A DNA stretch of 42,365 nt from a virus: positions 1 through 42,365 of IMG/VR virus record IMGVR_UViG_3300037294_000660; one strand, given 5' to 3'. The position numbers were made by a program, and so were the translations under genes. The notes below the pieces were generated by a model. That model saw only the letters and a program-made list of their open reading frames with translations, searched no databases and was not told where the DNA came from. Position 1 is the stretch's first letter. Every line of letters starts with the position of its first letter. Positions 8,693 to 31,056 of the stretch are shown here, in pieces.

Positions 8693-8728
8693 CAAATTTC
8701 AAGGAATTCAAGCAGTGATAAAAGGACA
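8693..8728 (-). promoter_or_regulatory. Late promoter A (TGTCC type)
   Basis: Minus-strand element: TGTCCTTTT (8728-8720), 19 nt, then GAAATTTG (8700-8693), a 7/8 match to the Bacteroidetes -7 box TAnnTTTG. It is followed by ATAAAAATAAA and the ATG at 8677. The geometry matches the four other copies in the window. No TTG -33 box is present; TGTCC occupies that position. Confidence 0.75.
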
Positions 8729-8731
8729 TAA

Positions 8732-8761
8732 AAAAACCATTAGCCGCGGCTAATGGTTTTT
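8732..8761 (-). terminator. Rho-independent terminator, moron unit / late block A boundary
   Basis: Perfect 30-bp palindrome. The stem half is AAAAACCATTAGCCG and it ends in T/A tracts on both strands. It follows the XRE gene (stop at 8782) and precedes late promoter A, so it separates the moron from the tail operon. Its CCATT..AATGG arms resemble the terminator at 9543-9570. Confidence 0.85.
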
Positions 8762-8781
8762 CATAAAAGTAAACTTATAGG

Positions 8782-9093
8782 TTAATTTTTAGGCAGTTTA
8801 TCAGGACGACGGCCCAAGGTTTCCATTGCTTTTTCCATTGCAATATTCAAATCAGTTTTACTTTCTTTATCTTCAAAAAAGAAATTTACATTTATGGCTT
8901 TGGCAATTATCAAGAAATTTTTTAAATCAGGCGTGAATTTAGCAGAAAAAAAGCGAGATACATTAGATCGTATTAAACCCGTTTCGTCAGCTATTTGCTG
9001 CTGTGTAATTCCTTTTTGTTGACGGATTTCGTCAAGTAAAAAAACGAGCAACTTCCATTGTTGCTCGTTTGTGTTTTGGTTTTCGTTACTCAT
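8782..9093 (-). CDS. XRE-family helix-turn-helix regulator
   Basis: 103-aa DNA-binding protein. Residues about 15-70 form a Cro/CI-type HTH: EIRQQKGITQQQIADETGL, then IRSNVSRFFSAKFTPDLKNF, and then a hydrophobic helix. No C-terminal peptidase domain is present. It is the second gene of a two-gene unit with the 88-aa gene (3-bp gap), bounded by a palindromic operator/promoter upstream and a strong terminator downstream. It probably autoregulates through GTATCATATTTGATAC (9460-9475). The pair could be an antitoxin-like or exclusion moron, but no toxin signature is visible in the partner. Confidence 0.8.
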   Translation of the reverse strand: MSNENQNTNEQQWKLLVFLLDEIRQQKGITQQQIADETGLIRSNVSRFFSAKFTPDLKNFLIIAKAINVNFFFEDKESKTDLNIAMEKAMETLGRRPDKLPKN

Positions 9094-9096
9094 TAT

Positions 9097-9363
9097 CTAT
9101 TTATTTTCAACTTCAACAATCCATTCATTAACTTGATCTTCAATTTGTCTTGAAATAATAGAAAACAAAGCTACATCTTTGGCAGAACCTTCTAATTCAG
9201 TCGCATCATCATAATCAGGCATATTTGAAGTTGTTGCTGAAAAAGTTTTGTATTCTCCTAAAAAGTATAATTCTACTGTAATTTTTTTATGACCATGGCC
9301 AGCAGTTAAAGATTGAGTGTAATTTATTTCTAACTCTGAGTTTAAAAAATTGATAGTTGTCAT
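9097..9363 (-). CDS. Hypothetical protein, moron unit with XRE regulator
   Basis: 88-aa acidic protein with no recognised domain. It has alternating hydrophobic residues in the middle (HKKITVELYFLGEYKTFSA) and a helical C-terminus (DVALFSIISRQIEDQVNEW). No signal peptide or membrane segment is visible. It is the first gene of a two-gene unit with an XRE regulator and has its own promoter. The ATG at 9363 was chosen because the leader from the TATCTTTG box ends there. Function unknown; a toxin or accessory lysogeny role is possible but unsupported. Confidence 0.7.
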   Translation of the reverse strand: MTTINFLNSELEINYTQSLTAGHGHKKITVELYFLGEYKTFSATTSNMPDYDDATELEGSAKDVALFSIISRQIEDQVNEWIVEVENK

Positions 9364-9434
9364 AATAATTTTTGCCGTATTTCGCAGTTGCCGCCTGCTT
9401 CTAATTTCTTTCAGCTTATTTGCTTTCCGATATT

Positions 9435-9475
9435 CAAAGATACAACTATATTCTATTTAGTATCATATTTGATAC
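9435..9475 (-). promoter_or_regulatory. Promoter with palindromic operator for the 88-aa/XRE unit
   Basis: TATCTTTG (9442-9435) is a perfect TAnnTTTG -7 box. About 17 nt upstream lies the perfect 6-4-6 palindrome GTATCA-TATT-TGATAC (9460-9475), which covers the -33 position. This is the expected layout for autorepression by the XRE protein. Confidence 0.7.
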
Positions 9476-9542
9476 ATTTATTTTTAATTTTACTGTAAAC
9501 TTTAACATTTTAAGCGGTTTTATTGACTTTATAAGACATAAA

Positions 9543-9570
9543 AAAACCATTCACGACGGTGAATGGTTTT
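9543..9570 (-). terminator. Rho-independent terminator after the 81-aa gene
   Basis: A 12-bp perfect stem, AAAACCATTCAC, pairs with GTGAATGGTTTT around a GACG loop, ending in T/A runs. It lies 27 bp past the stop of the 81-aa gene. Confidence 0.85.
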
Positions 9571-9596
9571 GATAAAAGTAACTTATAAGTTTATTT

Positions 9597-9842
9597 TTAA
9601 ATTCTTTTAAAGTACCAGGAGAAAACAAGCGGTTCAGATTCCTTTGGTTCAAACCCTAATTCAATCAGCGCCTCATAAACAACATGTTCATCAACAGATT
9701 GAAAAGGAATAATTCGCTGGAAGTTTTCGACTAGTTTGTCTGTAGTATATTCAAACTCTTTGCTCAATACCTCTGCAGGGGTATAACTCTGGGAAATGAG
9801 TTTTTTTACTTCGTTCTTATAATTTAAAATGAATATTTCCAT
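9597..9842 (-). CDS. Hypothetical 81-aa protein downstream of a structured RNA leader
   Basis: Small, mostly helical acidic protein (MEIFILNYKNEVKKLISQ start; SWYFKRI end). No known domain. It is the only gene between the structured RNA (9845-9998) and the terminator at 9543-9570, so it forms its own transcription unit. Either the RNA is the 5' leader controlling this gene or it is an independent small RNA. The start follows an A/T-rich leader without a clear Shine-Dalgarno, normal for Bacteroidetes. Function unknown. Confidence 0.65.
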   Translation of the reverse strand: MEIFILNYKNEVKKLISQSYTPAEVLSKEFEYTTDKLVENFQRIIPFQSVDEHVVYEALIELGFEPKESEPLVFSWYFKRI

Positions 9843-9844
9843 AG

Positions 9845-9998
9845 TAAAATCAGTTAAATAGGGAGCGCCCTTTGCGGTTGACCAACCATTACGAGGAATG
9901 ATTATCGGACGGTTTTTTTTCCCGCTACCCGAATCCTGAGAACTCCCTATTTAAACTAATTATAGGGGGAACTCCTCGTATTTTAAAATGATTGGTCA
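9845..9998 (-). ncRNA. Structured RNA / leader with pseudoknot-like long-range pairing
   Basis: Two long inverted repeats interleave. (A) 9854-9865 (TTAAATAGGGAG on +) pairs perfectly with 9943-9954. (B) 9879-9897 (TGACCAACCATT then ACGAGGA) pairs with 9973-9980 and 9987-9998 (TCCTCGTA and AATGATTGGTCA, 11/12) with a bulge. A further hairpin, CCCTAT/ATAGGG, lies inside. Because A and B interleave, they form a pseudoknot or two alternative folds. A perfect -7 box, TATATTTG (10009-10002), on the minus strand places the transcript start at the first base of stem B. Candidate families to test are Flavo-1 and 6S RNA; I cannot assign one. It may also be a cis-leader for the 81-aa gene. Confidence 0.6.
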
Positions 9999-10001
9999 GA
10001 G

Positions 10002-10009
10002 CAAATATA
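10002..10009 (-). promoter_or_regulatory. -7 box for the structured RNA
   Basis: TATATTTG on the minus strand is a perfect TAnnTTTG match, ending about 4-7 nt before the first paired base of the RNA. No clear TTG -33 box was found at the normal spacing. Confidence 0.55.
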
Positions 10010-10017
10010 AGGTATTA

Positions 10018-10512
10018 TTACATATTGAGTAATTTTTTCTTTTCAGATTCAAATTCCTCTTTATTCAAAGTGCCATCAGACAGGAGTTCTTTCAACTTTT
10101 TTAATTTATCGTATTTATCAACAGAGGCAGCAGAAGTGGGATTATTGGTTTCTTTACAATTTTTTATTTCGCAAGTAGCGATTGCCTCTTCAATTTCTAA
10201 AGAATAATTGGTGATATTACCACCACCAACAATAAAAAAAACCTTTTCGGCACCCTTAAATTTTACTACCTTAATTTTTTTAATAATTACGTTTAATCCA
10301 GCATAAGCTGATCCAATTTGGATTGCACTTCCTGCCATCCATCCAGACATTTTTAAATAAACGAACGTACCCTGTAAACCAGAACCACGTCCAAGGGTGA
10401 TTGAGTCTCCTTCTTTATAAGTGACATCATTTGCAGCCTTATACTCTTCTACTCTCCCTTGTCCATTGGCAAAAGCAGAGACAAACAATAATACTAACGC
10501 TATTTTTTTCAT
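10018..10512 (-). CDS. Secreted protein with C-terminal SHOCT-like domain
   Basis: 164-aa protein using the ATG at 10512; an upstream extension would precede the signal peptide and overlap the previous gene. Residues 1-19 are a Sec signal peptide (MKKIALVLLFVSAFANGQ, Bacteroidetes-style cleavage before Q/G). The middle is beta-rich and Gly-rich. The C-terminal ~30 residues (KYDKLKKLKELLSDGTLNKE and the following EEFE) match a SHOCT short helical domain. It lies between the terminator of late block B and the structured RNA. A TATATTTA box upstream could be its own promoter. This suggests a lysogenic-conversion moron that alters the host periplasm or envelope, not a virion protein. That role is inferred. 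Confidence 0.72.
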   Translation of the reverse strand: MKKIALVLLFVSAFANGQGRVEEYKAANDVTYKEGDSITLGRGSGLQGTFVYLKMSGWMAGSAIQIGSAYAGLNVIIKKIKVVKFKGAEKVFFIVGGGNITNYSLEIEEAIATCEIKNCKETNNPTSAASVDKYDKLKKLKELLSDGTLNKEEFESEKKKLLNM

Positions 10513-10543
10513 TTTTATATGTTTAGTGAATCGTAAATATATG

Positions 10544-10567
10544 AAAAAACCCACACGAATGTAGGGT
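10544..10567 (-). terminator. Terminator of late block B (UUCG loop)
   Basis: On the minus strand, ACCC-T-ACA, a TTCG tetraloop, TGT-GGGT and a T6 run. It has one bulged T. It lies 26 bp downstream of the last block B gene and separates it from the secreted SHOCT-like moron. Confidence 0.75.
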
Positions 10568-10592
10568 GAATAATACATAAATATGTTTTGTA

Positions 10593-10802: not shown

Positions 10803-10888
10803 AAGGTCTGTTTTTTGTAGTTAAAAAGTGAAATTTGAATTTACATTTTTTTAAGACAATACTTACTGTTTTAAATAAACAACATAAA

Positions 10889-11410: not shown

Positions 11411-11411
11411 G

Positions 11412-12423: not shown

Positions 12424-12437
12424 AATTCCTTTACTTT

Positions 12438-17649: not shown

Positions 17650-18090
17650 TTAAGAATTTGGTAATGAAACTGATATTGGTTTGTAATTAAGATAATTGTT
17701 TACGTTGTTGTCGCCTGTGAGATTAAGATAAATAGCCATTGGCCAGTATTCAAGATCAGCATCCGCTCCTGGACCAAAACCGCGAGCGTAATCACCAAGT
17801 TCAATAACACCAGTTAAGTTGTCGGTAATCTTCTGCACTAAAGTAAATTTAGATTGCAGTGGCACTAAATTTTCTTCGACAGCCAGTATAGAATCAGACA
17901 ATGTTTGAGCAGTGCCTTCAAAACCTCCTTTGTCTAATTTTAAAGAAATGTCGGTATTAGCAAACTCCTGTAAAATCAACAAAATTGCTTCGTAAGCATC
18001 TTTGGCAGCTTGTGCCGAATTCTCATCAATGATGATTTCTATACGTGGTATAGGAACTCCATTTACCTCTATGCTTATATTATCGCTCAT
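17650..18090 (-). CDS. Hypothetical tail/baseplate protein
   Basis: 146-aa protein with a beta start (ISIEVNGVPIPRIEIIIDE), a helical segment (QAAKDAYEAILLILQEFA) and a beta C-terminus. KLDKGGFEGTAQTLSDSI resembles short shaft motifs used in phage fibre attachment. It overlaps the previous gene by 4 bp and precedes the S74 fibre by 4 bp. Likely an adaptor or connector between tail and fibre; inferred from position. Confidence 0.5.
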   Translation of the reverse strand: MSDNISIEVNGVPIPRIEIIIDENSAQAAKDAYEAILLILQEFANTDISLKLDKGGFEGTAQTLSDSILAVEENLVPLQSKFTLVQKITDNLTGVIELGDYARGFGPGADADLEYWPMAIYLNLTGDNNVNNYLNYKPISVSLPNS

Positions 18091-18629
18091 CGTGTTCCGG
18101 TTTGTTTAACGGTTACTTTTCCTTCCACATAGTAGACATTAGAGGTTGGTTTGCTCATTAGAATGTCATAGTAGTAGCTTTCGTAAGTCAATACTTTCGC
18201 TTGATCGGCAGTTATGGCAATTGATAAAATATTATTATCGATACCTGAAATCGTAAGTCCGGAACCAACTGTCAATTCGATAATAGCAGGAGCAGACTTG
18301 CTGTGTTTTACTTGCAGCTTAATAGACGAGAACTGCTGAAGGTTGATGGCAACAGCATCTTTGTTGAAAGTCAAATCGAAGTTGTGATTTTCGTTTTGTC
18401 GAATAGTAAAATCATACTTCCCTATTGAATCTCTGGTGGATGTATAAGAACTTATTTCAGAGGTTACGGATATAGCACGAAACAAAATAGAATCTCCTAC
18501 TTGTTTACTCACGCAAGAAAGCGTACCCGCCTCGGCAAGTTGCTTTATGAACTGACTTTCTAACTCACTTTCACCTATGAGTTTTATATCGTCTATGCCG
18601 TTGGCGGTGGGTACTCTTACTATTTGCAT
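18087..18629 (-). CDS. Baseplate/tail protein, BppU-like
   Basis: 180-aa, first gene of late block B. The C-terminal half reads like a BppU-type Ig fold: a motif with SIKLQVKHSKSAPAI, then GLTISGIDNNILSIAITADQ, then TYESYYYDILMSKPT and VEGKVTVKQTG. Such proteins are receptor-binding-apparatus adaptors. The ATG at 18629 lies 16 nt downstream of the late promoter B -7 box. The connector gene upstream ends at 18686. Confidence 0.5.
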   Translation of the reverse strand: MQIVRVPTANGIDDIKLIGESELESQFIKQLAEAGTLSCVSKQVGDSILFRAISVTSEISSYTSTRDSIGKYDFTIRQNENHNFDLTFNKDAVAINLQQFSSIKLQVKHSKSAPAIIELTVGSGLTISGIDNNILSIAITADQAKVLTYESYYYDILMSKPTSNVYYVEGKVTVKQTGTR

Positions 18630-18645
18630 TTCAATTTATTTTTAT

Positions 18646-18681
18646 CAAAAATAAGTTCGTGTGTGATTTTTTAAAAGGACA
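18646..18681 (-). promoter_or_regulatory. Late promoter B (TGTCC type)
   Basis: TGTCCTTTT (18681-18673), 19 nt, then TATTTTTG (18653-18646), a perfect TAnnTTTG. It is followed by ATAAAAATAAA and the ATG at 18629. This is the best-formed copy of the five. Confidence 0.8.
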
Positions 18682-19641: not shown

Positions 19642-20973
19642 TTATTTATGGATTATATTTTCTTGACCGTTTGGATTTTTATCTAATGTGGTAAGGTTGA
19701 CACCTGAGAACATGCCTATTAAGCTTTTGTCCCAATTGTTGAATGCACGCCAAAACAACCAATCATCGGACACGTAAATTCTCTTTGGGACCAATGAAGC
19801 AGAAAGAACAGTGTAGGCTTCACGGATGTTAGAACCGGAACCGCCAAGGTTAGAACCACCAGGAGTTCCTGCTCCAATAATTGCGGGATTTACTCCGATG
19901 GCGAAAAGAATTTCAGAGTTGGCCGCTGAAGCATCTGGAAGGTAAGAGCCGTCTTTTAGTTTATCATCTATAGGCACTACCTCGATCCCTTTTACAAACT
20001 TTCCACCGTCTTCGAATATTGGAGAAATCAGTGAACGCCCACCCGCTTTGTTTCCTGATAAGTGTTCATCAATAGCTGCAGACAATTCCTCACGCATTTT
20101 CTGGCGTTTATCCGCGTCGAAATCATCCCATTCCTCTTTGTAAAAGTTTTCAAAATAATAATCAGAAACGTAGATCATGAATTTTATGTGTGCCTGCTGA
20201 TCAAAGAAGGCTTTTTTAAATTCAGGAACAGAGTTTGCCACTTCCATCCAGCCATTGCGGTCCACTGCGTGCCAACCTGCTTTAGGATAGTAATTTTCGT
20301 CAACGAAAGCATAGGAAGAACTTGTACAGAAATTATAGATCCCTTTTTCTTTGCAGATGTCTTTTATTTCCTGAGCCGTCATTCTATCTTTATCAAAGAA
20401 TGGAATAGGCGTAGAGTAGTTTTTATTTGATGTAGCCCAATCAGTATTTATAACTACTAATGGAATATTGCCTGCTTCATTCATTTTTGCAAAGCGACAA
20501 TGTGCGGCTTTGTGGCGAATTGCTCTGACTATTTTTTCTCCATTAACTGAAATAACGTGTTCCGTAAATGCAATTTCAAAAAGCGATAGGTCTTTTATTT
20601 TAGCAGCCCAATATTTGTCTAAATTGTTTTCAAAAACAAATGTTTCAATTTCTGCATAATCTTCGATCAATTCTTCTTGAAGCTCTACTTTGCCCGCGGT
20701 GTTTTTTATTTTTTTGTACAAACCAAAACCATTACCGTAAGTGGTAGATGATAGCGTGTTGATCCCGCCAACTGCAGCTCCATTTTTTAGAAACTTTTTA
20801 TTGTAGAAATTTTGTGGGTACAAGTTGTCAGCTCCCCATTGCACTATTTCAGCAGTAGTATTTTCGTTCGAAGGATCAATCTTAATTTTGATTGCCGTCG
20901 GAATGGATGAATTAACAAGCCCCGTCAATGCAACTGATACTTTTCCTACGTGTATGTTTTTAAAATGTTCCAT
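19642..20973 (-). CDS. Portal protein
   Basis: 443-aa protein of portal size. The C-terminal motif ANSEILFAIGVNPAIIGAGT, then PGGSNLGGSGSNIREAYTVL, is characteristic of Bacteroidetes phage portals. The middle contains FFDQQAHIKFMIYVSDYYFE and a charged helix. It precedes the connector and follows the 109-aa gene by 1 bp. It should form the dodecameric DNA entry ring and dock the terminase. No fused nuclease or protease was seen. Confidence 0.85.
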   Translation of the reverse strand: MEHFKNIHVGKVSVALTGLVNSSIPTAIKIKIDPSNENTTAEIVQWGADNLYPQNFYNKKFLKNGAAVGGINTLSSTTYGNGFGLYKKIKNTAGKVELQEELIEDYAEIETFVFENNLDKYWAAKIKDLSLFEIAFTEHVISVNGEKIVRAIRHKAAHCRFAKMNEAGNIPLVVINTDWATSNKNYSTPIPFFDKDRMTAQEIKDICKEKGIYNFCTSSSYAFVDENYYPKAGWHAVDRNGWMEVANSVPEFKKAFFDQQAHIKFMIYVSDYYFENFYKEEWDDFDADKRQKMREELSAAIDEHLSGNKAGGRSLISPIFEDGGKFVKGIEVVPIDDKLKDGSYLPDASAANSEILFAIGVNPAIIGAGTPGGSNLGGSGSNIREAYTVLSASLVPKRIYVSDDWLFWRAFNNWDKSLIGMFSGVNLTTLDKNPNGQENIIHK

Positions 20974-20974: not shown

Positions 20975-21304
20975 TCAATATATTACTTCTAAGTCGTTGA
21001 ACTTAGTGATGTATAAAATGTTTAGTTTTTTTATTTGGCCAGAAATCAATTCTATATTTCTAGTTCTGTTTTGCCAATGGTTGGGATTCTTTCGTTCCAC
21101 TTCCTCCCGGTTGTAAAAAGCAAGTGGATTGAAAGGTTTTCCTTTTGTTTTTTTAGCCATCAATAATTTAGCGCCTTCATACCGTTTCAAAACCCCACCC
21201 ATTTTATTGTGACGGTTGTAGGTTCTGAACTCAATCGTGAAAGGAACTGCATCTCCTTTCGCATCGGTTTTTTTCATTTCTTCCAAAACCTGTATCATAA
21301 ACAT
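20975..21304 (-). CDS. Hypothetical protein before the portal
   Basis: 109-aa basic protein (VPFTIEFRTYNRHNKMGGVL, then KRYEGAKLL). No domain recognised. Start choice: the ATG at 21316 lies within 4 nt of the late promoter C -7 box, so a transcript from it would be nearly leaderless there. The ATG at 21304 is 16 nt from the box, as in block B, and was chosen. It may be a small head or packaging factor; position 1 bp before the portal supports only operon membership. Confidence 0.5.
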   Translation of the reverse strand: MFMIQVLEEMKKTDAKGDAVPFTIEFRTYNRHNKMGGVLKRYEGAKLLMAKKTKGKPFNPLAFYNREEVERKNPNHWQNRTRNIELISGQIKKLNILYITKFNDLEVIY

Positions 21305-21320
21305 TCTCTTAACCATGATT

Positions 21321-21356
21321 CAAAATTCGGTTTATAAACTATTTTTAAAAAGGACA
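21321..21356 (-). promoter_or_regulatory. Late promoter C (TGTCC type)
   Basis: TGTCCTTTT (21356-21348), 19 nt, then GAATTTTG (21328-21321), a 7/8 match to TAnnTTTG. Drives the portal block. The geometry matches copies A and B exactly. Confidence 0.72.
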
Positions 21357-21560: not shown

Positions 21561-23159
21561 CTATTTTTTCAGCGTATGCCCTTTGAACAATGGCAAGAAA
21601 ACTTTGTCGTGTTTTTGTTTGATAAGCTTAAAAACCTGCTTACTATATCTCCAGTAGAGTGGGATATCAAAAGTATCAGAGAAGTGAGTCGCATGTTGCT
21701 GAGGCAAGACCTTAGACTTCTCGCTTCGTTTATCTTTTACAATTGTGTTGGATTTATTGCCAGCGAGAGCTGGAGCATTCTCTAATGATATAATAAGATC
21801 CTGGCAATTGTTCTCGTTGATTTCTATTGCAGGCAATCCCATTGTACCACCATGTTTCAATAAGTAATTGATCACTATAAACTTCTCGTTATGCGGTGGG
21901 TTCTCAGCACCCTTGCGCACCTTCACTATGACTTTCCAGCCTTGACGCTTTAAGCAATCAATCGCCTGCTCTGCAAACGTTACTCTAGAGTTGGGTGTCT
22001 TATTGTTACCATTACGGTCATAGTAGAACTCAATCAGGTTGTTAGACTTCTTCTTATCTTCATAGTAAGGAGCGAACTCTTCATCAATTAAATCATCAAT
22101 GATCTTGGGTGAGTTCACATAGAAAGTCTTGAGACAACGGTAGCGTTCGCCTTGGTCTTGTGATACCTTAAGCGTTATGATGTTACCCCAGTCAATGGTC
22201 AAGATAAGCGGCTTACTCTTCATGTAGTCCGTGTCCTGCTTACAATTGAAGTCCTTAGCCCTGGCACGCACGCCTATTCCTTCTAAGTATTCGTTATCAT
22301 AGGCATTGCGGTAGTAATGCTTCTTTGGGTCAAGCTGTGGGTAGAACCCATTGGTCACCTTGGCAGGGCGTATGTTCCTGATCTCAGCATCATAATGCAT
22401 CACGCTTGGTGCATTGTCTCGCATACGTTCAAACCAAGAGGCAGACAGGTTGTGTTTATTTACCGCTGCAGGAGCTTTCACAAATAACACCTTCCAAGGT
22501 TCTTTTTTAGCTAACGCATCCAAGTCCGTAAACCATTGCCCTTTCTTAGTCATTGCCACAGAAGAAGCATATATCTCAGCATTACACAACGGCTGATCTT
22601 CATATAAACCGCCACAAGTAGAGCGGTTTGTAGTCTGTACGTTATTAAATAACTTTACATTATCCAGCAATGCTGCCTCATCCCCAATTACGATTGAAGA
22701 GTTAAGTCCACGTCCGGCATCAGTTTGATCATTACTAACTAATTGCCAAATAAAACCATTGGAAAAGTGAATTGTATTGTCCCAGTTCTTACTAGGCGAC
22801 TGGAAAGGCATTTCAAAACCAAGGCTTTTTCCACACTTTCCTACGACATAATCGATGTCTTCATATATCCCAAACATCGCCAATCCCGCCTTAGTAGAGG
22901 GTAGTGTCCTGGATAAGATTTGCTGATACGTTTCGCCGACTATTATTCCAGTTGCTTTAGGCATTTGCATTACGGATTCTTTGACAAACCAGCCTAATAT
23001 TGTTGACTTCCCAGAACCACGAGCCCATTCTAAAACAATGGTTTTAATATACATCTCCACCAAAGTAATTAGATTCATTACCTTTTTACTAGCTTTGGCT
23101 ATCGTGACTATTTGAGCAAGATTGAGCTCGATTTCGTTATTCTTCATCTTCATCCTCAT
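21561..23159 (-). CDS. terL: Terminase large subunit
   Basis: 532-aa DNA-packaging motor. The ATPase has Walker A AxGSGKST at about 46-53 (EWARGSGKSTIL) and a Walker B-type acidic strand SSIVIGDEAALLD. The C-terminal nuclease domain starts with LILTIDWGN, an RNase H-like acidic residue in strand 1, and the protein ends with HATHFSDTFDIPLYWRY. It overlaps the small subunit by 23 bp. Its start may be Met1, Met3 or Met5, all in the same frame. No intein was seen. It is the last gene of late block D. Confidence 0.92.
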   Translation of the reverse strand: MRMKMKNNEIELNLAQIVTIAKASKKVMNLITLVEMYIKTIVLEWARGSGKSTILGWFVKESVMQMPKATGIIVGETYQQILSRTLPSTKAGLAMFGIYEDIDYVVGKCGKSLGFEMPFQSPSKNWDNTIHFSNGFIWQLVSNDQTDAGRGLNSSIVIGDEAALLDNVKLFNNVQTTNRSTCGGLYEDQPLCNAEIYASSVAMTKKGQWFTDLDALAKKEPWKVLFVKAPAAVNKHNLSASWFERMRDNAPSVMHYDAEIRNIRPAKVTNGFYPQLDPKKHYYRNAYDNEYLEGIGVRARAKDFNCKQDTDYMKSKPLILTIDWGNIITLKVSQDQGERYRCLKTFYVNSPKIIDDLIDEEFAPYYEDKKKSNNLIEFYYDRNGNNKTPNSRVTFAEQAIDCLKRQGWKVIVKVRKGAENPPHNEKFIVINYLLKHGGTMGLPAIEINENNCQDLIISLENAPALAGNKSNTIVKDKRSEKSKVLPQQHATHFSDTFDIPLYWRYSKQVFKLIKQKHDKVFLPLFKGHTLKK

Positions 23160-23715
23160 TTACATCTTCATAATCGATATCCTCTGAATTCATATCATTG
23201 AAATCAATTAAACCACCATCCTCTCGACCTTCTAATGATTTCAAGACAGAAGGATGTACTTTCAAGATGTAAGTCTGAGCTTTCAGTTTCTCTGGATCAA
23301 AATTTGGATCAGTATCTTTATCAAAACCACCAATTTTAATCCTTTGCGCGATCACTTTCAATTCTAATGCCCCGTCTTTATCCTTGATAGCTCGCTGTTG
23401 CAAACGCATTAGATCCTCCTCAATTAAGTAACGCTTGGCTTCCTTGTGATTTTTTAATATATCTCCGAAAATCGCCAAAGAATCATTGACATAGCGATAC
23501 GCCTGAGCACGGCTAGAACCATCATTCACTAACACCGAAACAGCCTGTTCCTTGGAATGATAATTTATCATCAAGTTCCACGCTTTGGATATTTTTATAC
23601 GAGTTTCTTCTTGTGACTCGCTTAATGTAACGGTGTGTTCACCCTTGAGATAGTACTTGCGTATTTTATCCAGGGTTGTGACTTTCTTTCGAAGAATGAC
23701 CGCATTAGAACTCAT
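23137..23715 (-). CDS. terS: Terminase small subunit (putative)
   Basis: 192-aa protein directly before TerL. It has an HTH-type region (SKEQAVSVLVNDGSSRAQAY, RYVNDSLAIFGD), helical central domains and an acidic tail (NEDEDEE). This resembles small terminases that bind the packaging site and recruit TerL. It is the first gene of late block D, downstream of the D promoter. The overlap with TerL supports the pair. Fold-level recognition only. Confidence 0.75.
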   Translation of the reverse strand: MSSNAVILRKKVTTLDKIRKYYLKGEHTVTLSESQEETRIKISKAWNLMINYHSKEQAVSVLVNDGSSRAQAYRYVNDSLAIFGDILKNHKEAKRYLIEEDLMRLQQRAIKDKDGALELKVIAQRIKIGGFDKDTDPNFDPEKLKAQTYILKVHPSVLKSLEGREDGGLIDFNDMNSEDIDYEDVNEDEDEE

Positions 23716-23733
23716 ATTGCTATTATTTTAATG

Positions 23734-23768
23734 CAAGGTCATAAACGGTAAGTGTAGAAAAAAGGACA
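23734..23768 (-). promoter_or_regulatory. Late promoter D (TGTCC type, weaker -7 box)
   Basis: TGTCCTTTT (23768-23760), then TGACCTTG (23741-23734). The spacer is 18 instead of 19 nt and the -7 box matches only partly. It directly precedes the small terminase gene. The TGTCC half is perfect. Confidence 0.6.
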
Positions 23769-23771
23769 AAT

Positions 23772-23802
23772 AAAAAAGCCCCACGTTTAGTGAGGCTTTT
23801 TT
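23772..23802 (-). terminator. Terminator between membrane moron and terminase block
   Basis: AAAAAAGCC, a C/A mismatch, CAC, a GTTTA loop, then GTG and GGCTTTTTT. It lies 3 bp past the membrane gene's stop and just upstream of late promoter D. Confidence 0.8.
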
Positions 23803-23805
23803 ATT

Positions 23806-25011
23806 TTATTTTGGTGTTGGTATTTTTGCTAATACTTTATTTAAAACACCCGTTACAAACTTTATTTTAGAAGGATCGTCTTCTTCTTTTTTTTCAATAG
23901 TATTGCTTTGCATTCGCTCAAAATAATTGATAATTTGGTTCCATTTCAAAGTTTCTCTCTTGTGCTCTATATTAACTTTTGATTCACTTATATGGATGTT
24001 TATTTCATTAGTATCGGGATCTTCGTAATCTTTAACTATTGCTAAACCATACTCATTTAATGCTTGAGCTATATTGCCAGAAACAGAATAAATAGCAGAC
24101 ATGTTTCTCTTATCTTGATTAATTTTTTCATAGGTAATTAGTAACCCTTTTATTAAAGCATAACCTCCTGTAAATACTGCACTTAAGCATAATGCCCAAG
24201 GTAATTTCAAAACTAATATTCCAAAAGCATAATTAATAATTGGCATTGAGCCTGCTTTGGCATCTAAAGCTAGAACATAAGCGTTATAATTGTCAAAAGA
24301 TTTGAGTAAATTAGGAATACTAATTGCGATCGTCAAGCCAATTGCTACAACTACAAGAACTATTACTGCCGTATAAAGTTTCATATTATTGTTTGTTTCT
24401 TCTATAAAATCTTTAAACTGATTAATTAGCCTTACCTTGCTTTTAGCATCTTGCTCTGCTGATCTAATTTTTTGTTTTGCATCCTGTTCTGCTAAATTAA
24501 TATCCTGTTTAGCAATATTTTCTGCAACTTTAATAGCGTGTAAAGCTTTTTCATTAGCCGTTTTAACCGTAGTATTAATCGAACTTATTTTACTTTCAAG
24601 CTCAATATTTTTCAAATTTATTTCAATATCTAATTCATCTCTAGTTTTTCTTAACTCTTCGATTTCTTTACTAATAATCGATACAAATGAATGAAATGAA
24701 GAACCTTCAACCGAATCTCCCTCCTTACCAATTAAATCATTTAAAGTAGATATTCTTGATTCTAGTTTCCCAATTTGCTTTTTCTTAGATGCAATATTTT
24801 TTTTTAATAAATCGTCATTTATTAAATGATCAAAATCTATGTGCTTAAAATCTTCTGCTAATTTCGAAAGTCCAGCATTACTATTTTCATAATGTTCAAT
24901 AGGCAAATAAGTGGCAAAACTCACTCCGTAAGCAGATACTAATTGAGGTAATTTTTCAATAATTAGTTTTAAATCACTAATGTGATCTTCATAATCTACT
25001 TCTTCTTCCAT
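23806..25011 (-). CDS. Coiled-coil two-helix membrane protein (moron)
   Basis: 401-aa protein from the ATG at 25011, which fits a TAGGTTTG -7 box just upstream. Residues about 45-200 are a long charged coiled coil with repeated AEQDAK motifs. Transmembrane helices lie near 208-232 (LYTAVIVLVVVAIGLTIAIS) and 257-285 (LKLPWALCLSAVFTGGYALI). The C-terminal third is soluble and ends in EEDDPSKIKF. No enzyme motif was found. The gene is bounded by its own promoter and terminators at both ends, so it is an independent transcription unit among late genes. That is the pattern of a lysogenic-conversion gene, for example superinfection exclusion or defence. The role is untested and I do not recognise a family. 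Confidence 0.65.
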   Translation of the reverse strand: MEEEVDYEDHISDLKLIIEKLPQLVSAYGVSFATYLPIEHYENSNAGLSKLAEDFKHIDFDHLINDDLLKKNIASKKKQIGKLESRISTLNDLIGKEGDSVEGSSFHSFVSIISKEIEELRKTRDELDIEINLKNIELESKISSINTTVKTANEKALHAIKVAENIAKQDINLAEQDAKQKIRSAEQDAKSKVRLINQFKDFIEETNNNMKLYTAVIVLVVVAIGLTIAISIPNLLKSFDNYNAYVLALDAKAGSMPIINYAFGILVLKLPWALCLSAVFTGGYALIKGLLITYEKINQDKRNMSAIYSVSGNIAQALNEYGLAIVKDYEDPDTNEINIHISESKVNIEHKRETLKWNQIINYFERMQSNTIEKKEEDDPSKIKFVTGVLNKVLAKIPTPK

Positions 25012-25089: not shown

Positions 25090-26373
25090 TTATTCAAAAT
25101 ATTTATCAATTTCAATTTTCGATAAAACTTCTCCATTTTTTAAGAGTTCAAAGTCCAAGTGATTTTCACGCATGTACTTAAGCCATCTCCTCACATCGAC
25201 ATCAACATATCGAGGATCAAGTTCAATCCCGCGACATTGCCTCCAGTTCATTTCACAGCATATTAAAGTGGTACCAGAACCAAGGAATGGATCACCAATG
25301 ATATCACTCTGTTTTGAACTATTTTTCATCAAGTAAGTAAACAAATCAACAGGCTTCATTGTCGGGTGATCTTCACTTCTTATCGGTTTATTAAATTCAA
25401 TCACAGTGGTTTGCTTCCGGTCAGAATACCAGTTATGCGCAGCGCCTTCTTTCCATCCATAAAGTACAGGTTCGTGCTTCCATTGATAGTCTTGGCGACC
25501 CATTACAATAGAGTTTTTCAACCAAATAAGGCATTGAGCTAGTTTATAACCGCCATCCTTTAGCGCATTTCTAAAATTAGCACCTTCACTATCTGCATGA
25601 AAAACATAAATACCACCGCCTAATTGTGTATGATCACAAGCCGTTTTATAAAATTCAAATAGAAAAGTATAAAAGTCGGCACTTGTCATATTGTCATTTT
25701 CAATCTGCAACTTATCTTTAGTGCCCCCGGTATAATTTACGTTATATGGTGGATCAGTCAATACGAGATCAAATAATTTTTCCTCAAGTAATGCTTCATA
25801 AACTTCTGGCGATCGACTATCTCCACAAACCACACGATGCACGAGTTTCTTTTGTTTCGAATGCATCTCATAAACATCGCCTAAAACTGTGATAGGTTCT
25901 TTTGGCAAAACTGGATCAAAGTCAGTTTCCTCTTCAGATTGTAGTTCCATAGGCAAACCATCATCTGGCAATGGAATATCATCTACATTTAATCCAAGAG
26001 ACAACAAATCAATATCCGTAAAAATGGCATTCAAAATATCAATATCCCATTCTCCAACAGATACATTCGAGCGAATATTGTACTCTTTAAACTCTAATTC
26101 AGTCAGTTCGCGATTGGGAACACGAACATCAATCTCCTCTTCGCCTCTTCCTATTTCCAAAAGAACAACAACACGCTGATGGCCAGCAATGATGATGTTA
26201 TCTGTATTGATAGCAGGAATTTCGGCAAGATTGTATTTTTCTAAACTCTCTCTAAGTTTTTGTTTTTTGTCTTCAGACAGTTTTCGGGGATTGTACTCAT
26301 AAGGAATCAAATCCCTAACTTTTCTTTTTTGGGTGGACCACTCCAGCGGAGCTAATAATAATAAATTACTCAT
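25090..26373 (-). CDS. ParB-like domain fused to DNA adenine methyltransferase
   Basis: 427-aa fusion. Residues about 15-105 are a ParB/Srx-type domain with NPR (28-30) and AGHQR (63-67). Residues about 165-427 are a beta-class-order DNA methyltransferase: DPPY motif IV (207-210, TDPPYNVNY) precedes SAM-binding motif I FLGSGTT (363-369). N6-adenine or N4-cytosine specificity is possible; DPPY favours adenine. Such ParB-methylase fusions are common in phages and may protect phage DNA from restriction or mark packaging sites. It overlaps the 246-aa gene by 8 bp and is followed by a terminator. The ParB part may bind DNA or act as a CTPase; unproven. Confidence 0.88.
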   Translation of the reverse strand: MSNLLLLAPLEWSTQKRKVRDLIPYEYNPRKLSEDKKQKLRESLEKYNLAEIPAINTDNIIIAGHQRVVVLLEIGRGEEEIDVRVPNRELTELEFKEYNIRSNVSVGEWDIDILNAIFTDIDLLSLGLNVDDIPLPDDGLPMELQSEEETDFDPVLPKEPITVLGDVYEMHSKQKKLVHRVVCGDSRSPEVYEALLEEKLFDLVLTDPPYNVNYTGGTKDKLQIENDNMTSADFYTFLFEFYKTACDHTQLGGGIYVFHADSEGANFRNALKDGGYKLAQCLIWLKNSIVMGRQDYQWKHEPVLYGWKEGAAHNWYSDRKQTTVIEFNKPIRSEDHPTMKPVDLFTYLMKNSSKQSDIIGDPFLGSGTTLICCEMNWRQCRGIELDPRYVDVDVRRWLKYMRENHLDFELLKNGEVLSKIEIDKYFE

Positions 26374-27106
26374 CTTTCAAAATTTTTCTAATCGTTTCTA
26401 AATCAATTTTTAGTTGCTCCAGTTGTTCCAGTTTTCGGTTCAGCAAAGAGAGAAGTCCTCGCTCTTCAGGAGACGCTTTTACCTGCTCCTTCATGACATC
26501 GATTGTTTTCTCTCGTTTACTGATCCTAGACTGTAGGTTGTCCCGAAGCTTTACTAGTTGAATTCCGTTTAGCTTTTTGAAGTCCTCGCTTTCCTCCGTT
26601 GGCATAACTCTATTGTGATCTTTCCAGTGATCTAGAATCATCCAGGCTCTATCAATCTTGGTCCACAGATCTTCGAGTTGAATGATAATGGTAAGCGCAC
26701 TATTTTCGTCATCATCTTCAAGTAAATTCAATTGGAATTTGAGCTCACAAGAATGATAAAAATCATTCACACGTTGACGGTACGTAGAATGCAATTGCGG
26801 TGGATACATTGCCATCGTTTCTTTCTGAAAAGAAACAGCAACCGACTGTTTTATAATTTCCTGCAATAAAGGCTTGGCTTTAGGTATAGGATTAACCACA
26901 GCCATAGCCTTTTCTATTTTAGGAGTAATCGTAGGTTTTTCAGAAAACGAAGCCTTTTTGAGTTCGTATTTCAGTTTAAGAAAATTAGCTGTTGATTCCT
27001 TACCGAAGCTTCTCAGCACATTGCTATTGCAAGAGGCTAATTTGCTGTAAAGCAAAACCCCATCATCGTAAGAACCGGAATAAGCAAACCAACCATGGAT
27101 ATTCAT
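26366..27106 (-). CDS. Conserved phage protein upstream of the ParB-methylase
   Basis: 246-aa helical protein. The ATG at 27106 is preferred over the longer form, since the longer N-terminus would run through the terminator hairpin. The N-terminus MNIHGWFAYSGSYDDGVLLY matches a start pattern I recall in Bacteroidetes phage genes next to such methylases. Its C-terminus is a long coiled coil (EQLEQLKIDLETIRKIL). The middle holds a DDDENSALTIIIQ stretch. It may assist the methylase or chromosome-like binding. Unassigned. Confidence 0.55.
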   Translation of the reverse strand: MNIHGWFAYSGSYDDGVLLYSKLASCNSNVLRSFGKESTANFLKLKYELKKASFSEKPTITPKIEKAMAVVNPIPKAKPLLQEIIKQSVAVSFQKETMAMYPPQLHSTYRQRVNDFYHSCELKFQLNLLEDDDENSALTIIIQLEDLWTKIDRAWMILDHWKDHNRVMPTEESEDFKKLNGIQLVKLRDNLQSRISKREKTIDVMKEQVKASPEERGLLSLLNRKLEQLEQLKIDLETIRKILKDE

Positions 27107-27118
27107 AAAAAACCATTT

Positions 27119-27151
27119 AAAAAAAAGTCCGAGCATTACACCCAGACTTTT
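27119..27151 (-). terminator. Terminator of late block E
   Basis: Minus strand: AAGTCTGGGT, GTAAT loop, GCTCGGACTT (10-bp stem with G-U pairs), then a T8 run. It lies 32 bp after the last block E gene and within the leader of the 246-aa gene, so it may also act as an attenuator for that unit. Confidence 0.8.
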
Positions 27152-27182
27152 CACTAATTAAAAACCAATAAAAATGAAAAAG

Positions 27183-27488
27183 CTACTTAAATTCTGCTAT
27201 TCTCGCTTTTGCAACTTCCTGAACTTTCTCACTGTCAGGTTTTGCCAAAGCCAAAATTTCTACATCCTCGATGCGTCTTGCTTTTTTGATTAAATGCAAT
27301 AGATCTGCAATTTTCTCCTTTTTAAAAAGCTCCTCGGCACCAGGCTTTAATCCCAAATATTTAAATCCTCCTTTGTAGACTTCCAAGGAATTATTTGGAA
27401 TTCCGGTACGTAAATCAAACCTTGCCCCACCGTTTAAAACGAAGGAGCAAGGAATGGCTAGATTTACTATTTCAAAAAACTTATTCAT
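27183..27488 (-). CDS. Hypothetical structural protein, end of late block E
   Basis: 101-aa protein: N-terminal strand segment (AIPCSFVLNGGARFDLRT) and helical Lys/Glu-rich C-terminus. No motif recognised. Its ATG overlaps the preceding stop by 1 bp. Downstream of capsid and tail-tube candidate genes, so a head-tail or tail chaperone-type role is possible. Confidence 0.5.
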   Translation of the reverse strand: MNKFFEIVNLAIPCSFVLNGGARFDLRTGIPNNSLEVYKGGFKYLGLKPGAEELFKKEKIADLLHLIKKARRIEDVEILALAKPDSEKVQEVAKARIAEFK

Positions 27489-28048
27489 TATACAACTGCA
27501 GGCTCTTGTATTACCCCAGAGTAAACAATAGGCACACAGAAGGATTCAATGGTAAAATTTACCATTTTATCATCCTCACCACCTTTTCCAGTGGTAGACT
27601 TACCTTCAATAATATACGCCGCACTGTATTTATCCCCTACAAGACGTTTTTGTCCATCCCGTTCTGGAACTAAAAACAACATAGGCGTGTTCTTATGGGT
27701 TCTCATAAATCCAAGTGTAGTCTTGTCGTTTCCTGAAACTGCAAAAGCAAAGGAGCTTTTGGTTTTCTTATTACCTTTGTTCCCTACTAAATCACACATC
27801 ACTTCTCCGGTGTCTGGCATCAACACTATTTTTCCAAATCCTTTTCCAGCTTGAAAAACAATATCGGTAGTAACTTCTACTGCTGTTCCGTAAGTGTAGC
27901 CCACCTCACCATAATTTAAAGGCATCGGAAACGTGGTGATTTGAGGATGAATGGCATAGCGCACACCCACCTCAGAAACGCCTGCTTGTACTTCACCATT
28001 GATACAAGCTGTTAAATCTTCTACTGGTAAATCGTCAAAACAATTCAT
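27488..28048 (-). CDS. Putative major tail (tube) protein
   Basis: 186-aa beta-rich protein with no coiled coil or signal peptide. It contains GKGFGKIVLMPDTGEVMCDL, then LGFMRTHKNTPMLFLVPERD. Its place after the capsid and capsid-associated genes and its size fit the major tail-tube protein of siphoviruses. No homology was confirmed. Alternatives are a head-decoration or head-tail connector protein. Confidence 0.5.
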   Translation of the reverse strand: MNCFDDLPVEDLTACINGEVQAGVSEVGVRYAIHPQITTFPMPLNYGEVGYTYGTAVEVTTDIVFQAGKGFGKIVLMPDTGEVMCDLVGNKGNKKTKSSFAFAVSGNDKTTLGFMRTHKNTPMLFLVPERDGQKRLVGDKYSAAYIIEGKSTTGKGGEDDKMVNFTIESFCVPIVYSGVIQEPAVV

Positions 28049-28051
28049 AGT

Positions 28052-28618: not shown

Positions 28619-28632
28619 AATTTCCTAAAGGA

Positions 28633-29628
28633 TTAAATTACTTCTTCTGGGTAATACAACGCATTCAATGCTGCATCTCTCAATCCTCTTACTAAAATAG
28701 TAGGGGAGTTCAGTACTACCAACTCATTGACTGCATAGTCATACCCAAGAGTAAATTCTCCAAAAACTTTGATTTTGTAATCTAATTTTTGAACATCCGT
28801 AATTGTACCAGGGTTTTCAATCACATCAATCATACGCACTAAGTTTCCTTCCAGCGTAGATTCAAGAACCGCATCATTCATGTTAGGAACTGATATTATC
28901 GCACGCTTCCCTAAACGAGTCATCAATCCTTTAGAATCAGTGAAGTTTGTATTTTTACCATACAAGTCTTCATATTTCAAAGAATAATTCTCGGCATTGG
29001 TATCACTCATCTTGACGCTCTTAATCAAAGACTTGTATTGTTTTGGGATTGATCTCTCAAAATCCAGAACAACATCCAAGATGTTATTAGCGTCAATAGC
29101 ATCTGTAGGAATTACGAAACAAGGGTTTACCGTGTTCAATAATAATTTACGGTGAATTTCATTCAAACCATCCATTGATTTACCAAAAACCGTTGGTTGT
29201 GTAGCATCGTACACACCTGTAATAGACAACAAATTCACATCACTAATTACTTTAGCTTTCAACATTGTCATTACGTGCTTACTAATGCTTTTGTCCTTCA
29301 ACTCTACACCTTCATCGTATTTTTGCTCAACCCAAGAACCAATCACTTCAGCTGGAGTAAAAGCAAAATTCACTTTCTGGTGGTAGTTTTTCAACTGTTT
29401 TCCACGAAATTGCACATCGGCAGTTTCAGTCCAAGTAGTAGAGAATTGCTGCACTACGTGGCCCATTAATGAATTTACCGTAGCAAACTCACCACGGATT
29501 TTTGGAACTAATCTCGCGATCTTATTTAAAAGAATTTCGCTAGACATTATCATTCCGTTCAGAATAGTAGGATTCTGATCCTTGAAACGTTTTGTTTCCT
29601 CTAAAATTTGGTCGATGTTTACTGACAT
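28633..29628 (-). CDS. Major capsid protein
   Basis: 331-aa protein of major-capsid size, directly after the protease/scaffold gene. It has an N-terminal helical start, an alpha/beta core and an extended C-terminal region (VFGEFTLGYDYAVNELVVL) as in HK97-fold capsid proteins. No enzymatic motif. The gene order protease-scaffold, capsid, capsid-associated protein is classic for phage heads. The call rests on order and size plus resemblance to Bacteroidetes phage capsids. Confidence 0.82.
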   Translation of the reverse strand: MSVNIDQILEETKRFKDQNPTILNGMIMSSEILLNKIARLVPKIRGEFATVNSLMGHVVQQFSTTWTETADVQFRGKQLKNYHQKVNFAFTPAEVIGSWVEQKYDEGVELKDKSISKHVMTMLKAKVISDVNLLSITGVYDATQPTVFGKSMDGLNEIHRKLLLNTVNPCFVIPTDAIDANNILDVVLDFERSIPKQYKSLIKSVKMSDTNAENYSLKYEDLYGKNTNFTDSKGLMTRLGKRAIISVPNMNDAVLESTLEGNLVRMIDVIENPGTITDVQKLDYKIKVFGEFTLGYDYAVNELVVLNSPTILVRGLRDAALNALYYPEEVI

Positions 29629-29638
29629 GATTTAAAAA

Positions 29639-30082
29639 TTAAGCCTTGTTATACAATTCATTGTGACCATCTGTGGCATTCACAACGTTATCTTCTTTCT
29701 CAAATGAATCACCCTCTGCTTTTGGCGTACTCACCTTTGCACCGGGTTTCTTTCCATACTCAACTACGGTTGCGCCTAGCAATGTAATTTTGTTCTCCGT
29801 TGTCGCTTCCGCTTCCACTTTAGCATCAAGACCGGCAGCTGTCACAGCAGTATTAATAGCTCCTTCAATTGCAGTAACACGGCTTTCTGCTGTGGTTGCT
29901 TTTCCAGTTGCTGTAGCAACGGCAGCATCTTTTTCAACCAGTGCGTTTTCAATAGCTTCTAGTTGCGCTTCCGAAATCTGTATTCCACTCTTCCCGGTAA
30001 TTGTAGAAATAGTCCCAAGACCATCTCCTTCAATCCCAAGAATGCCTTGGATTACAGGAAAGCCTTTAGTCTTTTTTGACAT
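29639..30082 (-). CDS. Nested scaffold protein (internal start in the protease gene)
   Basis: An in-frame ATG at 30082 would give a 147-aa protein, MSKKTKGFPVIQGILGIEGD and following. It is preceded by a Shine-Dalgarno-like and A-rich AAAAAAGGAAACT and by a low-complexity Asn/Ser linker (NSNSNNNSKKE). This mirrors lambda C/Nu3, where the scaffold is translated from an internal start. The product is helical and acidic, as expected for a scaffold. The internal start is inferred from sequence. Confidence 0.5.
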   Translation of the reverse strand: MSKKTKGFPVIQGILGIEGDGLGTISTITGKSGIQISEAQLEAIENALVEKDAAVATATGKATTAESRVTAIEGAINTAVTAAGLDAKVEAEATTENKITLLGATVVEYGKKPGAKVSTPKAEGDSFEKEDNVVNATDGHNELYNKA

Positions 30083-30985
30083 AGTTTCCTTTTTTGAATT
30101 ATTATTTGAATTTGAATTTGAATTTTTTGCAGCTGCTAATTCGAAAACCTTTGCGATGGCAGTTTGAAGTGTGCCAATTTCGTCAACTAGTTTTCTTTCT
30201 AATGATTCCTGAGCGTTCCAAGTTCCACCTTTGAAAACATCATTTGGAACCGCAGAACGAACGGCCTTAATATCATTGATAAACTCCTCCGCAATAGGAT
30301 CAAGTTCGTTTTTAATATAAAGCTCAGGATTGCCTTTTAGCAATTGCTCGAAGGCGTTGTTCTTTTCTGTAGATTGCGTAGCATATTCTGTAATTACCTT
30401 AGCGCCTTTTTTCTCGTACATGCCAGAAACATCAATAAAATGAATCATAACACCAATGCTTCCAATGGCATCTGCACGTTTATTAGCCACAATATAATTA
30501 GCAGCACTAGCGATGTAGTAAGCAGCAGAACACATCAACCCATCTGTGTAAGCCACAACTGGTTTTGAGGTTTCTTTAATAAAATCGTAAAATTCAGGAG
30601 TTCCTGAAACTTGACCACCGCCAGAATCAATATCTAAAACAACCCCTTTACAATTTGGATCCTGTAAATAGGATTGCATCATTCTAGCTTTCGTTTTTGT
30701 CCCAGCAGGACCACACTCTTGATTGTATTTATAAATAGGATCTTTCAACCCAATTACAGCAACATAAGATTCGCTGTTATTTCCTTTATCAAAAGAAGCC
30801 GCTTTCAAACTGTGCTTTCCCTTTACTGCAATAAATACATCAGGGATTTTTATTTTTAGATCAACGACAGAAACAAGAGACTTACCTTCTATAATAGAAA
30901 AAAGAGAAGGCAGTAAAGCTTTCCCGTACTGTTCATGAATGAACCATTTTCCATTTATTAATGAATGAATGTTTTGTACGCTCAA
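29639..30985 (-). CDS. S49-family capsid protease with C-terminal scaffold region
   Basis: 448-aa maturation protease of the SppA/ClpP-like S49 type. It has DIDSGGG (118-124) and the likely nucleophile Ser153 in GLMCSAAYYIASAA, then ADAIGSIGVM, matching phage head proteases such as lambda C. The C-terminal ~150 residues are helical and Ala/Thr/Glu-rich (LEAIENALVEKDAAVATATG), typical of a scaffold, fused or translated separately from an internal ATG (see 29639-30082). The start is TTG at 30985; I found no in-frame ATG before the domain. It is the first gene of late block E, downstream of the TGTCC promoter at 31021-31056, with a longer leader than the other blocks. Confidence 0.85.
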   Translation of the reverse strand: MSVQNIHSLINGKWFIHEQYGKALLPSLFSIIEGKSLVSVVDLKIKIPDVFIAVKGKHSLKAASFDKGNNSESYVAVIGLKDPIYKYNQECGPAGTKTKARMMQSYLQDPNCKGVVLDIDSGGGQVSGTPEFYDFIKETSKPVVAYTDGLMCSAAYYIASAANYIVANKRADAIGSIGVMIHFIDVSGMYEKKGAKVITEYATQSTEKNNAFEQLLKGNPELYIKNELDPIAEEFINDIKAVRSAVPNDVFKGGTWNAQESLERKLVDEIGTLQTAIAKVFELAAAKNSNSNSNNNSKKETMSKKTKGFPVIQGILGIEGDGLGTISTITGKSGIQISEAQLEAIENALVEKDAAVATATGKATTAESRVTAIEGAINTAVTAAGLDAKVEAEATTENKITLLGATVVEYGKKPGAKVSTPKAEGDSFEKEDNVVNATDGHNELYNKA

Positions 30986-31020
30986 AATATAAAAGTTTTT
31001 CGTTAGTATTATTGACGATA

Positions 31021-31056
31021 CAATTTTACTACCATATTACACTTTTAAAAAGGACA
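31021..31056 (-). promoter_or_regulatory. Late promoter E (TGTCC type)
   Basis: TGTCCTTTT (31056-31048), 19 nt, then TAAAATTG (31028-31021), a 7/8 match to TAnnTTTG. It drives the head gene block; the leader to the TTG start is about 36 nt. Confidence 0.7.

What the first reader, a model, noticed from the sequence alone, without database searches (positions are those of the whole stretch)
8693..31056. Five copies of a phage-specific late promoter, TGTCCTTTT-N19-TAnnTTTG, co-ordinate the structural blocks
On the minus strand TGTCCTTTT occurs at 8728, 18681, 21356, 23768 and 31056. I noticed this 9-mer nowhere else in the window. Each copy lies just upstream of the first gene of a late block: tail block, tail-fibre/lysis block, portal block, terminase block, head block. 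A Bacteroidetes -7 box or near match follows after exactly 19 nt in four copies and 18 nt in the fifth (TATTTTTG, GAAATTTG, GAATTTTG, TAAAATTG, TGACCTTG). TGTCC takes the place of the usual TTG -33 box, so an activator or alternative factor is likely. Copies A and B also share TTTGATAAAAATAAA before the ATG. I know of no described phage promoter of this form in Bacteroidetes.
Basis: partly seen in the sequence, partly recalled or inferred. Interest (0 to 1): 0.92.

Follow-up and report, generated by a model that had tools for sequence, protein, structure and literature searches.

The report
Phage late promoter across Bacteroidota phages
Five copies of a DNA switch that very probably turns on this virus's structural genes are real, and the same switch, with lineage-specific spelling, precedes structural genes in viruses across the Bacteroidota, always together with one uncharacterised protein that is probably its activator.

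Summary
Confirmed and extended. TGTCCTTTT occurs exactly five times in the window, all on the minus strand, each before the first gene of a late block. In 20 related contigs (16 after removing near-duplicates) it precedes the orthologous block-first genes in 56 of 62 cases, against 3 of 246 elsewhere.

A sigma-A-type -7 box (A at offset 29, TTTG at 32-35) follows at fixed spacing, with A enriched at the predicted +1. The element therefore lies at about -40 to -32: the T run covers the -33 position and TGTCC lies just upstream.

It is a class, not one phage's promoter. Phages of Polaribacter, Flavobacterium, Bacteroides and Porphyromonas use it with lineage-specific spelling: TGTCCTTTT, TGTCCTAT, ACGTCCTA, TGTCACA, TGTCTTAA.

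All 14 (near-)complete motif phages encode relatives of ORF 31590-32030, in the window just upstream of the late region. Five phages used as outgroup controls lack it. Spelling tracks this protein's clade. It has no Pfam, NCBIfam or solved-fold match.

Best reading: host RNA polymerase with sigma-A, plus a phage activator, probably ORF31590. Promoter role about 0.93; activator identity about 0.7, inferred. Nothing was tested at the bench. No prior description was found in the open-access papers searched.

The parts
8720..8728 (-). Late promoter A, upstream box TGTCCTTTT (predicted -40 to -32), neck/tail block
8693..8700 (-). -7 box of promoter A, GAAATTTG; predicted +1 at 8688 (A)
   Evidence: offset rule
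8731..8762 (-). Intrinsic terminator-like hairpin and T run ending 2 nt before promoter A
18673..18681 (-). Late promoter B, TGTCCTTTT, tail-fibre/lysis block
18646..18653 (-). -7 box of promoter B, TATTTTTG; predicted +1 at 18641 (A)
21348..21356 (-). Late promoter C, TGTCCTTTT, portal block
21321..21328 (-). -7 box of promoter C, GAATTTTG; predicted +1 at 21316 is the A of the ATG of ORF 20975-21316 (leaderless transcript predicted)
23760..23768 (-). Late promoter D, TGTCCTTTT, terminase block
23733..23740 (-). -7 box of promoter D, GACCTTGC (TTGC type); predicted +1 at 23728 (A)
   Evidence: PMC9723704 SM5 motif
23768..23806 (-). Intrinsic terminator-like hairpin abutting promoter D
31048..31056 (-). 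Late promoter E, TGTCCTTTT, head block
31021..31028 (-). -7 box of promoter E, TAAAATTG; predicted +1 near 31016
31590..32030 (-). ORF31590 (146 aa), candidate late activator; family found in all 14 (near-)complete motif phages, in the window just upstream of the late region
   Evidence: model pLDDT 87 with no PDB fold match
41013..41582 (-). LuxR/GerE-like early regulator (189 aa), rival candidate factor; missing from several motif phages
29639..30985 (-). Head maturation protease, first gene of the head block
23137..23715 (-). Putative small terminase, first gene of the terminase block (TerL follows, 21561-23159)
   Evidence: TerL PHROG hit; position immediately before TerL; conserved
20975..21316 (-). 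First gene of the portal block (portal is 19642-20973)
18087..18629 (-). First gene of the tail-fibre/lysis block
8201..8695 (-). Neck-like gene, first gene of the tail block (TMP is 4833-8201)

Best explanation
The five sites are late promoters of one class. Host RNA polymerase with the housekeeping sigma factor melts DNA at the ordinary -7 box (TAnnTTTG or a TTG-type variant). The host -33 contact is replaced or supplemented by a phage-encoded activator that reads TGTCCTTTT at about -40 to -32, at fixed rotational spacing. The most likely activator is the product of ORF 31590-32030, made from the early/middle region and encoded just upstream of the late region. Once it accumulates it switches on all five structural blocks together, and terminators directly before two of the promoters separate those blocks. 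Shown: conservation, positions, spacing, strand, co-occurrence, and co-variation of the box with this protein's clade. Inferred: transcription start, activator identity, direct DNA contact, contact with sigma or RNA polymerase.
For: Counts above chance: five copies against 0.95 expected, and 62 against 9.8 in 16 non-redundant contigs. Ortholog-anchored: 56 of 62 block-first genes against 3 of 246 other genes (includes four near-duplicate contigs). Fixed -7 geometry with A at offset 29 and TTTG at 32-35, flat on the opposite strand. Unbiased word counts downstream of act-family genes: GTCCTTT is the top 7-mer in 56 non-redundant Bacteroidales-type loci (81 against 20.8 expected; 22 on the opposite strand); TGTCACA is among the top words in 20 Duneviridae-type loci (32 against 5.2; 6 opposite). 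With the -7 geometry: 85 against 1 and 26 against 0 by strand; box class against act clade p about 1e-21 by site, treating sites as independent. ORF31590 family in 14 of 14 (near-)complete motif phages and none of five controls, while LuxR is in 8 of 14. Different boxes in phages of one host genus: TGTCCTTTT (window), TGTCACA (laban6-1), TGTCTTAA (6H). Host genomes not enriched. BT-TP2's homologue is annotated 'transcriptional regulator' in its record.
Against: No transcript start, reporter or binding data. ORF31590 has no recognised DNA-binding domain in Pfam, PHROGs or NCBIfam and no PDB fold match. Other genes are also universal (packaging and head genes, and unknown late genes o26366 and o27488), so co-occurrence alone does not single it out. 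Box and act clade could co-vary simply because whole phage lineages do. Some act-bearing loci show none of the named boxes with this geometry (20 of 79 and 10 of 26), though several have a TGTCTTTT-type box and flanks reach only 10 kb.
Confidence: 0.74

Rival explanations
1. Same late promoters, but the factor is the early LuxR/GerE-like protein ORF 41013-41582, not ORF31590.
For: It has a weak GerE helix-turn-helix match, lies in the early region and is conserved in several related phages.
Against: Not detected in G009, G010, G339, BT-TP2 and two P. gingivalis phages, all of which have the promoters. Its position beside the repressor suggests an early switch role (inference).
Confidence: 0.1
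2. A host-encoded alternative sigma factor or activator recognises TGTCCTTTT.
For: The -7 box matches the host sigma-A type. Host ECF sigma factors and regulators were not excluded directly.
Against: The pattern is at background in two host Flavobacterium genomes and one Flavobacteriales MAG, and phages of the same host genus use different boxes.
Confidence: 0.05
3. A plain sigma-A promoter whose TGTCC is only an accessory or UP-like sequence, with late timing set by replication or read-through.
For: The -7 box is retained and the stretch just upstream of the motif is A/T-rich.
Against: Nine conserved bases, including GTCC, at a fixed distance and changing by lineage, are not expected of an A/T-rich accessory element.
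Confidence: 0.07
4. Not a promoter: an operator, terminator or packaging/replication mark that happens to lie between blocks.
For: Two copies abut terminators.
Against: Strict orientation, fixed -7 spacing, start-adjacent position and enriched A at the predicted +1 fit a promoter.
Confidence: 0.02

Closest known systems
Phage T4 middle promoters (MotA box, AsiA/MotA sigma appropriation; PMC2988021, PMC6755090)
   Same: A roughly 9-bp phage-specific box replaces the host -35 element while the host core box is kept; one host polymerase is redirected by phage factors.
   Different: MotA box is centred at -30, 12 +/- 1 bp from the -10 box; here the box is centred near -36 and its last base is 19 nt before the -7 box. 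Unrelated host sigma and sequences, late rather than middle genes, and no MotA or AsiA match.
Bacteroidota housekeeping promoters (-33 TTG / -7 TAnnTTTG; F. psychrophilum TSS map, PMC9723704)
   Same: The -7 box and its distance to the predicted start (box at -12 to -5).
   Different: No TTG -33 box; a conserved TGTCCTTTT-type element instead, found at late phage genes and not enriched in host genomes.
Activator-dependent late promoters of temperate phages (P2 Ogr, Mu C; from general knowledge)
   Same: A small phage activator, made before the late genes, switches on several late operons together.
   Different: No Ogr or Mu C family match for ORF31590; different box and position; different host phylum.
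Polaribacter phage Leef_1 (Helgolandviridae, PMC8776804)
   Same: Six TGTCCTTTT copies on the late strand, gp39 is an ORF31590 relative, similar gene order.
   Different: The word 'promoter' does not occur in the paper's main text; the proteins are only distantly similar (TerL 46%).

Membership tests
Bacteroidota sigma-A promoter | -7 box TAnnTTTG (or close variant) | tested here: met
   A29 and TTTG/TTGC at offsets 32-35 in the window and most relatives
Bacteroidota sigma-A promoter | -33 TTG box | tested here: not met
   TTTT occupies that position in all five copies; TGTCC precedes it
T4-type sigma appropriation | MotA and AsiA homologues | tested here: not met
   No such match in the Pfam/PHROGs scans of the window proteins searched; no PDB match for ORF31590
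T4-type sigma appropriation | Box 12 +/- 1 bp from the core box | tested here: not met
   19 nt from the box end to the -7 octamer; T4 value from PMC2988021
T4-type sigma appropriation | Phage factor contacts sigma region 4 | not testable with these tools
   Needs biochemistry
Phage-encoded alternative sigma factor | Sigma domain protein in the phage | tested here: not met
   None in the PHROGs/Pfam scans of the window ORFs searched; a few small ORFs under 75 aa were not scanned
P2 Ogr / Mu C late activators | Family domain in the candidate activator | tested here: not met
   No Pfam, PHROGs or NCBIfam match for ORF31590
Activator-dependent phage late promoter (functional kind) | Shared motif upstream of several late operons, absent from early genes | tested here: met
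   56 of 62 block-first genes; no exact match among 73 early-gene upstream regions
Activator-dependent phage late promoter (functional kind) | Late transcription depends on a phage protein | not testable with these tools
   Needs deletion and RNA data

The most novel reading that the evidence does not exclude
The ORF31590 family is a previously unrecognised, structurally novel class of promoter-specificity factor that controls late genes in temperate siphophages across the Bacteroidota. Each lineage has its own box (TGTCCTTTT, TGTCCTAT, ACGTCCTA, TGTCACA, TGTCTTAA, TGTCTTTT) at one fixed position above the host -7 box, giving a set of mutually distinct protein-promoter pairs.
Probability: 0.55. 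Interest if true: 0.86.

Novelty: new variant of a known kind. Interest (0 to 1): 0.76.

Why it matters
How Bacteroidota phages time their late genes is little described in the literature searched, although Bacteroidota dominate the gut and are common in aquatic systems. A shared late-promoter code with one candidate activator makes the question directly testable, gives a way to mark late operons in unannotated phage genomes, offers a family-wide function guess for an unannotated protein family, and could supply orthogonal inducible promoters for Bacteroides and Flavobacterium.

Tried and rejected
Host alternative sigma: rejected as the main idea because the pattern is not enriched in host genomes and boxes differ within one host genus. 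LuxR as the factor: demoted because it is missing from several motif phages. Gene o31062, between ORF31590 and the protease: only 6 of 14 phages. Fold search with two models gave no PDB match; the BFVD search found Leef_1 gp39, one uncharacterised 78-aa phage protein over 68 residues, and only weak ribbon-helix-helix-like hits. A first geometry scan with a strict -7 rule missed several phages and was replaced by word counts and a looser rule. Rfam: nothing. Genome-wide phylum search found only 4 of 396 genomes with the profile as first built, so the spread was followed through phage collections. Literature searches found no description of this promoter; subscription journals are not covered.
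Full report
The window is a temperate siphophage record from IMG/VR. An integrase lies at 1-1221 and a repressor-like gene at 42000 onward. The early region (LuxR-like ORF 41013-41582, primase 37033-40473) and all late genes run on the minus strand. Related prophages (ORF31590 72-76% identical) lie in Flavobacterium genomes, so the host is probably a Flavobacterium; this is inferred.

Observation. Shuffled sequence gives 0.95 copies on average. Near-copies with one mismatch are only slightly above background, so the exact word matters. Each copy precedes the first gene of a block: head protease, putative small terminase, portal block, tail-fibre/lysis block, neck/tail block.

Conservation. Relatives were fetched with ORF31590 and the large terminase, and whole contigs were read. 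The word stands at the same places in phages whose terminases are about 30-98% identical, while the sequence between the word and the -7 box varies freely. Starting from orthologous genes rather than from the motif, 56 of 62 block-first genes have an exact copy within 150 nt upstream. Among genes inside blocks or in the early region the figure is 3 of 246; those three (o26366 in Leef_1, o11412 in Leef_1 and one more contig) are genes that begin a block in the phage concerned. Four of the 20 contigs are near-duplicates; in the 16 others the word occurs 62 times against 9.8 expected.

Geometry. Relative to the first T of TGTC (offset 0), an A at offset 29, T at 33 and mostly TTTG at 32-35 are strongly conserved (that matrix was made from sites chosen for containing the word, so only the positions outside the word are informative). 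F. psychrophilum sigma-A boxes occupy -12 to -5 (PMC9723704), which puts +1 at offset 40; an A is enriched exactly there. The box is thus at -40 to -32: the T run lies over the -33 position and TGTCC lies just above it. Copy D keeps the same geometry with a TTGC-ending box, like the TAnnTTGY class in the same paper. In copy C the predicted +1 is the A of the start codon, so that messenger may be leaderless. Strong terminator-like hairpins lie directly before copies A and D.

Spread. Polaribacter phage Leef_1 has six copies, all on the late strand. Other phages have the same layout with changed spelling, found in several cases by counting intergenic words without a motif in mind and then by position: TGTCCTAT (G192), ACGTCCTA (G339), TGTCACA (laban6-1), TGTCTTAA (6H), TGTCCTTTT in Mea-Yong and Bacteroides phage BT-TP2, [TA]GTCCTTT in P. 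gingivalis phages. Downstream of ORF31590-family genes in IMG/VR loci, GTCCTTT is the most over-represented of all 7-mers in 56 non-redundant Bacteroidales-type loci, and TGTCACA is among the top words in 20 Duneviridae-type loci. Both sets show the same -7 offsets; the opposite strand is flat. With the -7 rule the counts are 85 against 1 and 26 against 0 by strand, and the two box classes are nearly exclusive to the two clades. These p-values treat sites as independent, which related loci are not.

Factor. A profile of ORF31590 finds relatives in all 14 (near-)complete motif phages and in none of five Bacteroidota phages fetched as controls (11b, RAP44, B40-8, P2559S, FCL-2). The other universal families are integrase, packaging, head and tail genes and two unknown late genes. 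The LuxR-like protein is found in 8 of 14; one of the six absences (G004) may be due to a truncated contig. In the window, and in the annotated P. gingivalis and BT-TP2 records, the gene lies just upstream of the head protease region. In Mea-Yong it lies near the primase, about 10 kb before the head genes, so the close position is common but not universal. It has no Pfam or NCBIfam match, only unknown-function PHROG matches for the Duneviridae members, and two confident models (pLDDT 84 and 87) have no PDB fold match. The N-terminal strand-helix-helix order resembles a ribbon-helix-helix fold, but no search supported that with confidence. It is the best activator candidate, not a proven one.

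Host factor test. In two host Flavobacterium genomes and one MAG the 9-mer is at background, and the strict full pattern is found in the prophages with one further hit in F. kayseriense. Phages of the same host genus use three different boxes. A host factor is therefore unlikely.

Comparison. The layout works like T4 middle promoters, where a phage box replaces the -35 element and the core box is kept (PMC2988021). It is not a member of that family: spacing differs and no MotA or AsiA homologue was found. It also resembles, in function, activator-driven late promoters of P2 and Mu (general knowledge), again without homology. Open-access literature searches found no earlier description, but subscription journals were not covered.

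Verdict. A real late-promoter class of Bacteroidota temperate phages, with lineage-specific boxes and a probable, uncharacterised activator family. The sequence evidence for the promoter is strong; the activator assignment and the mechanism are inferred.

Noticed in passing
window 31010-31028 (-) and the same place in about 10 relatives: The head promoter overlaps an inverted repeat (TAAAATTGTATCGTTA...TAACGATACAATTTTA) that starts in the -7 box; well kept in relatives, degenerate in the window. The left arm lies mostly upstream of the predicted start, so it looks like a DNA operator rather than an RNA hairpin.
   Followed up: no
window 9534-9570 (-): A strong terminator followed by TGTCTTATA without a good -7 box; possibly a decayed sixth late promoter before a small cargo block.
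   Followed up: partly
window 20975-21316 (-): The portal-block messenger is predicted to be leaderless: predicted +1 is the A of the ATG, and the 40-nt distance is kept in most relatives.
   Followed up: partly
G009 (L039-L041) and G010 (L042-L044): Two ORF31590-family paralogues about 1 kb apart in each phage.
   Followed up: no
window 26366-27154 and 27488-28048 (-): Two late-region genes with no family match that are conserved in all 14 complete phages; probably core virion or packaging proteins.
   Followed up: no
window 41876-41966: A divergent pair of ordinary TTG/TAnnTTTG promoters next to the repressor, probably the lysogeny/early switch.
   Followed up: no
L007 1-40 (in reverse numbering; G005 41959-41967): An inverted copy of the terminase promoter region at the contig end, probably an assembly artefact.
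   Followed up: no
L071, Microcystis phage Mea-Yong924-1: Labelled a Microcystis phage but carries the Bacteroidota-type late promoters and an ORF31590 relative; the named host may be wrong.
   Followed up: no
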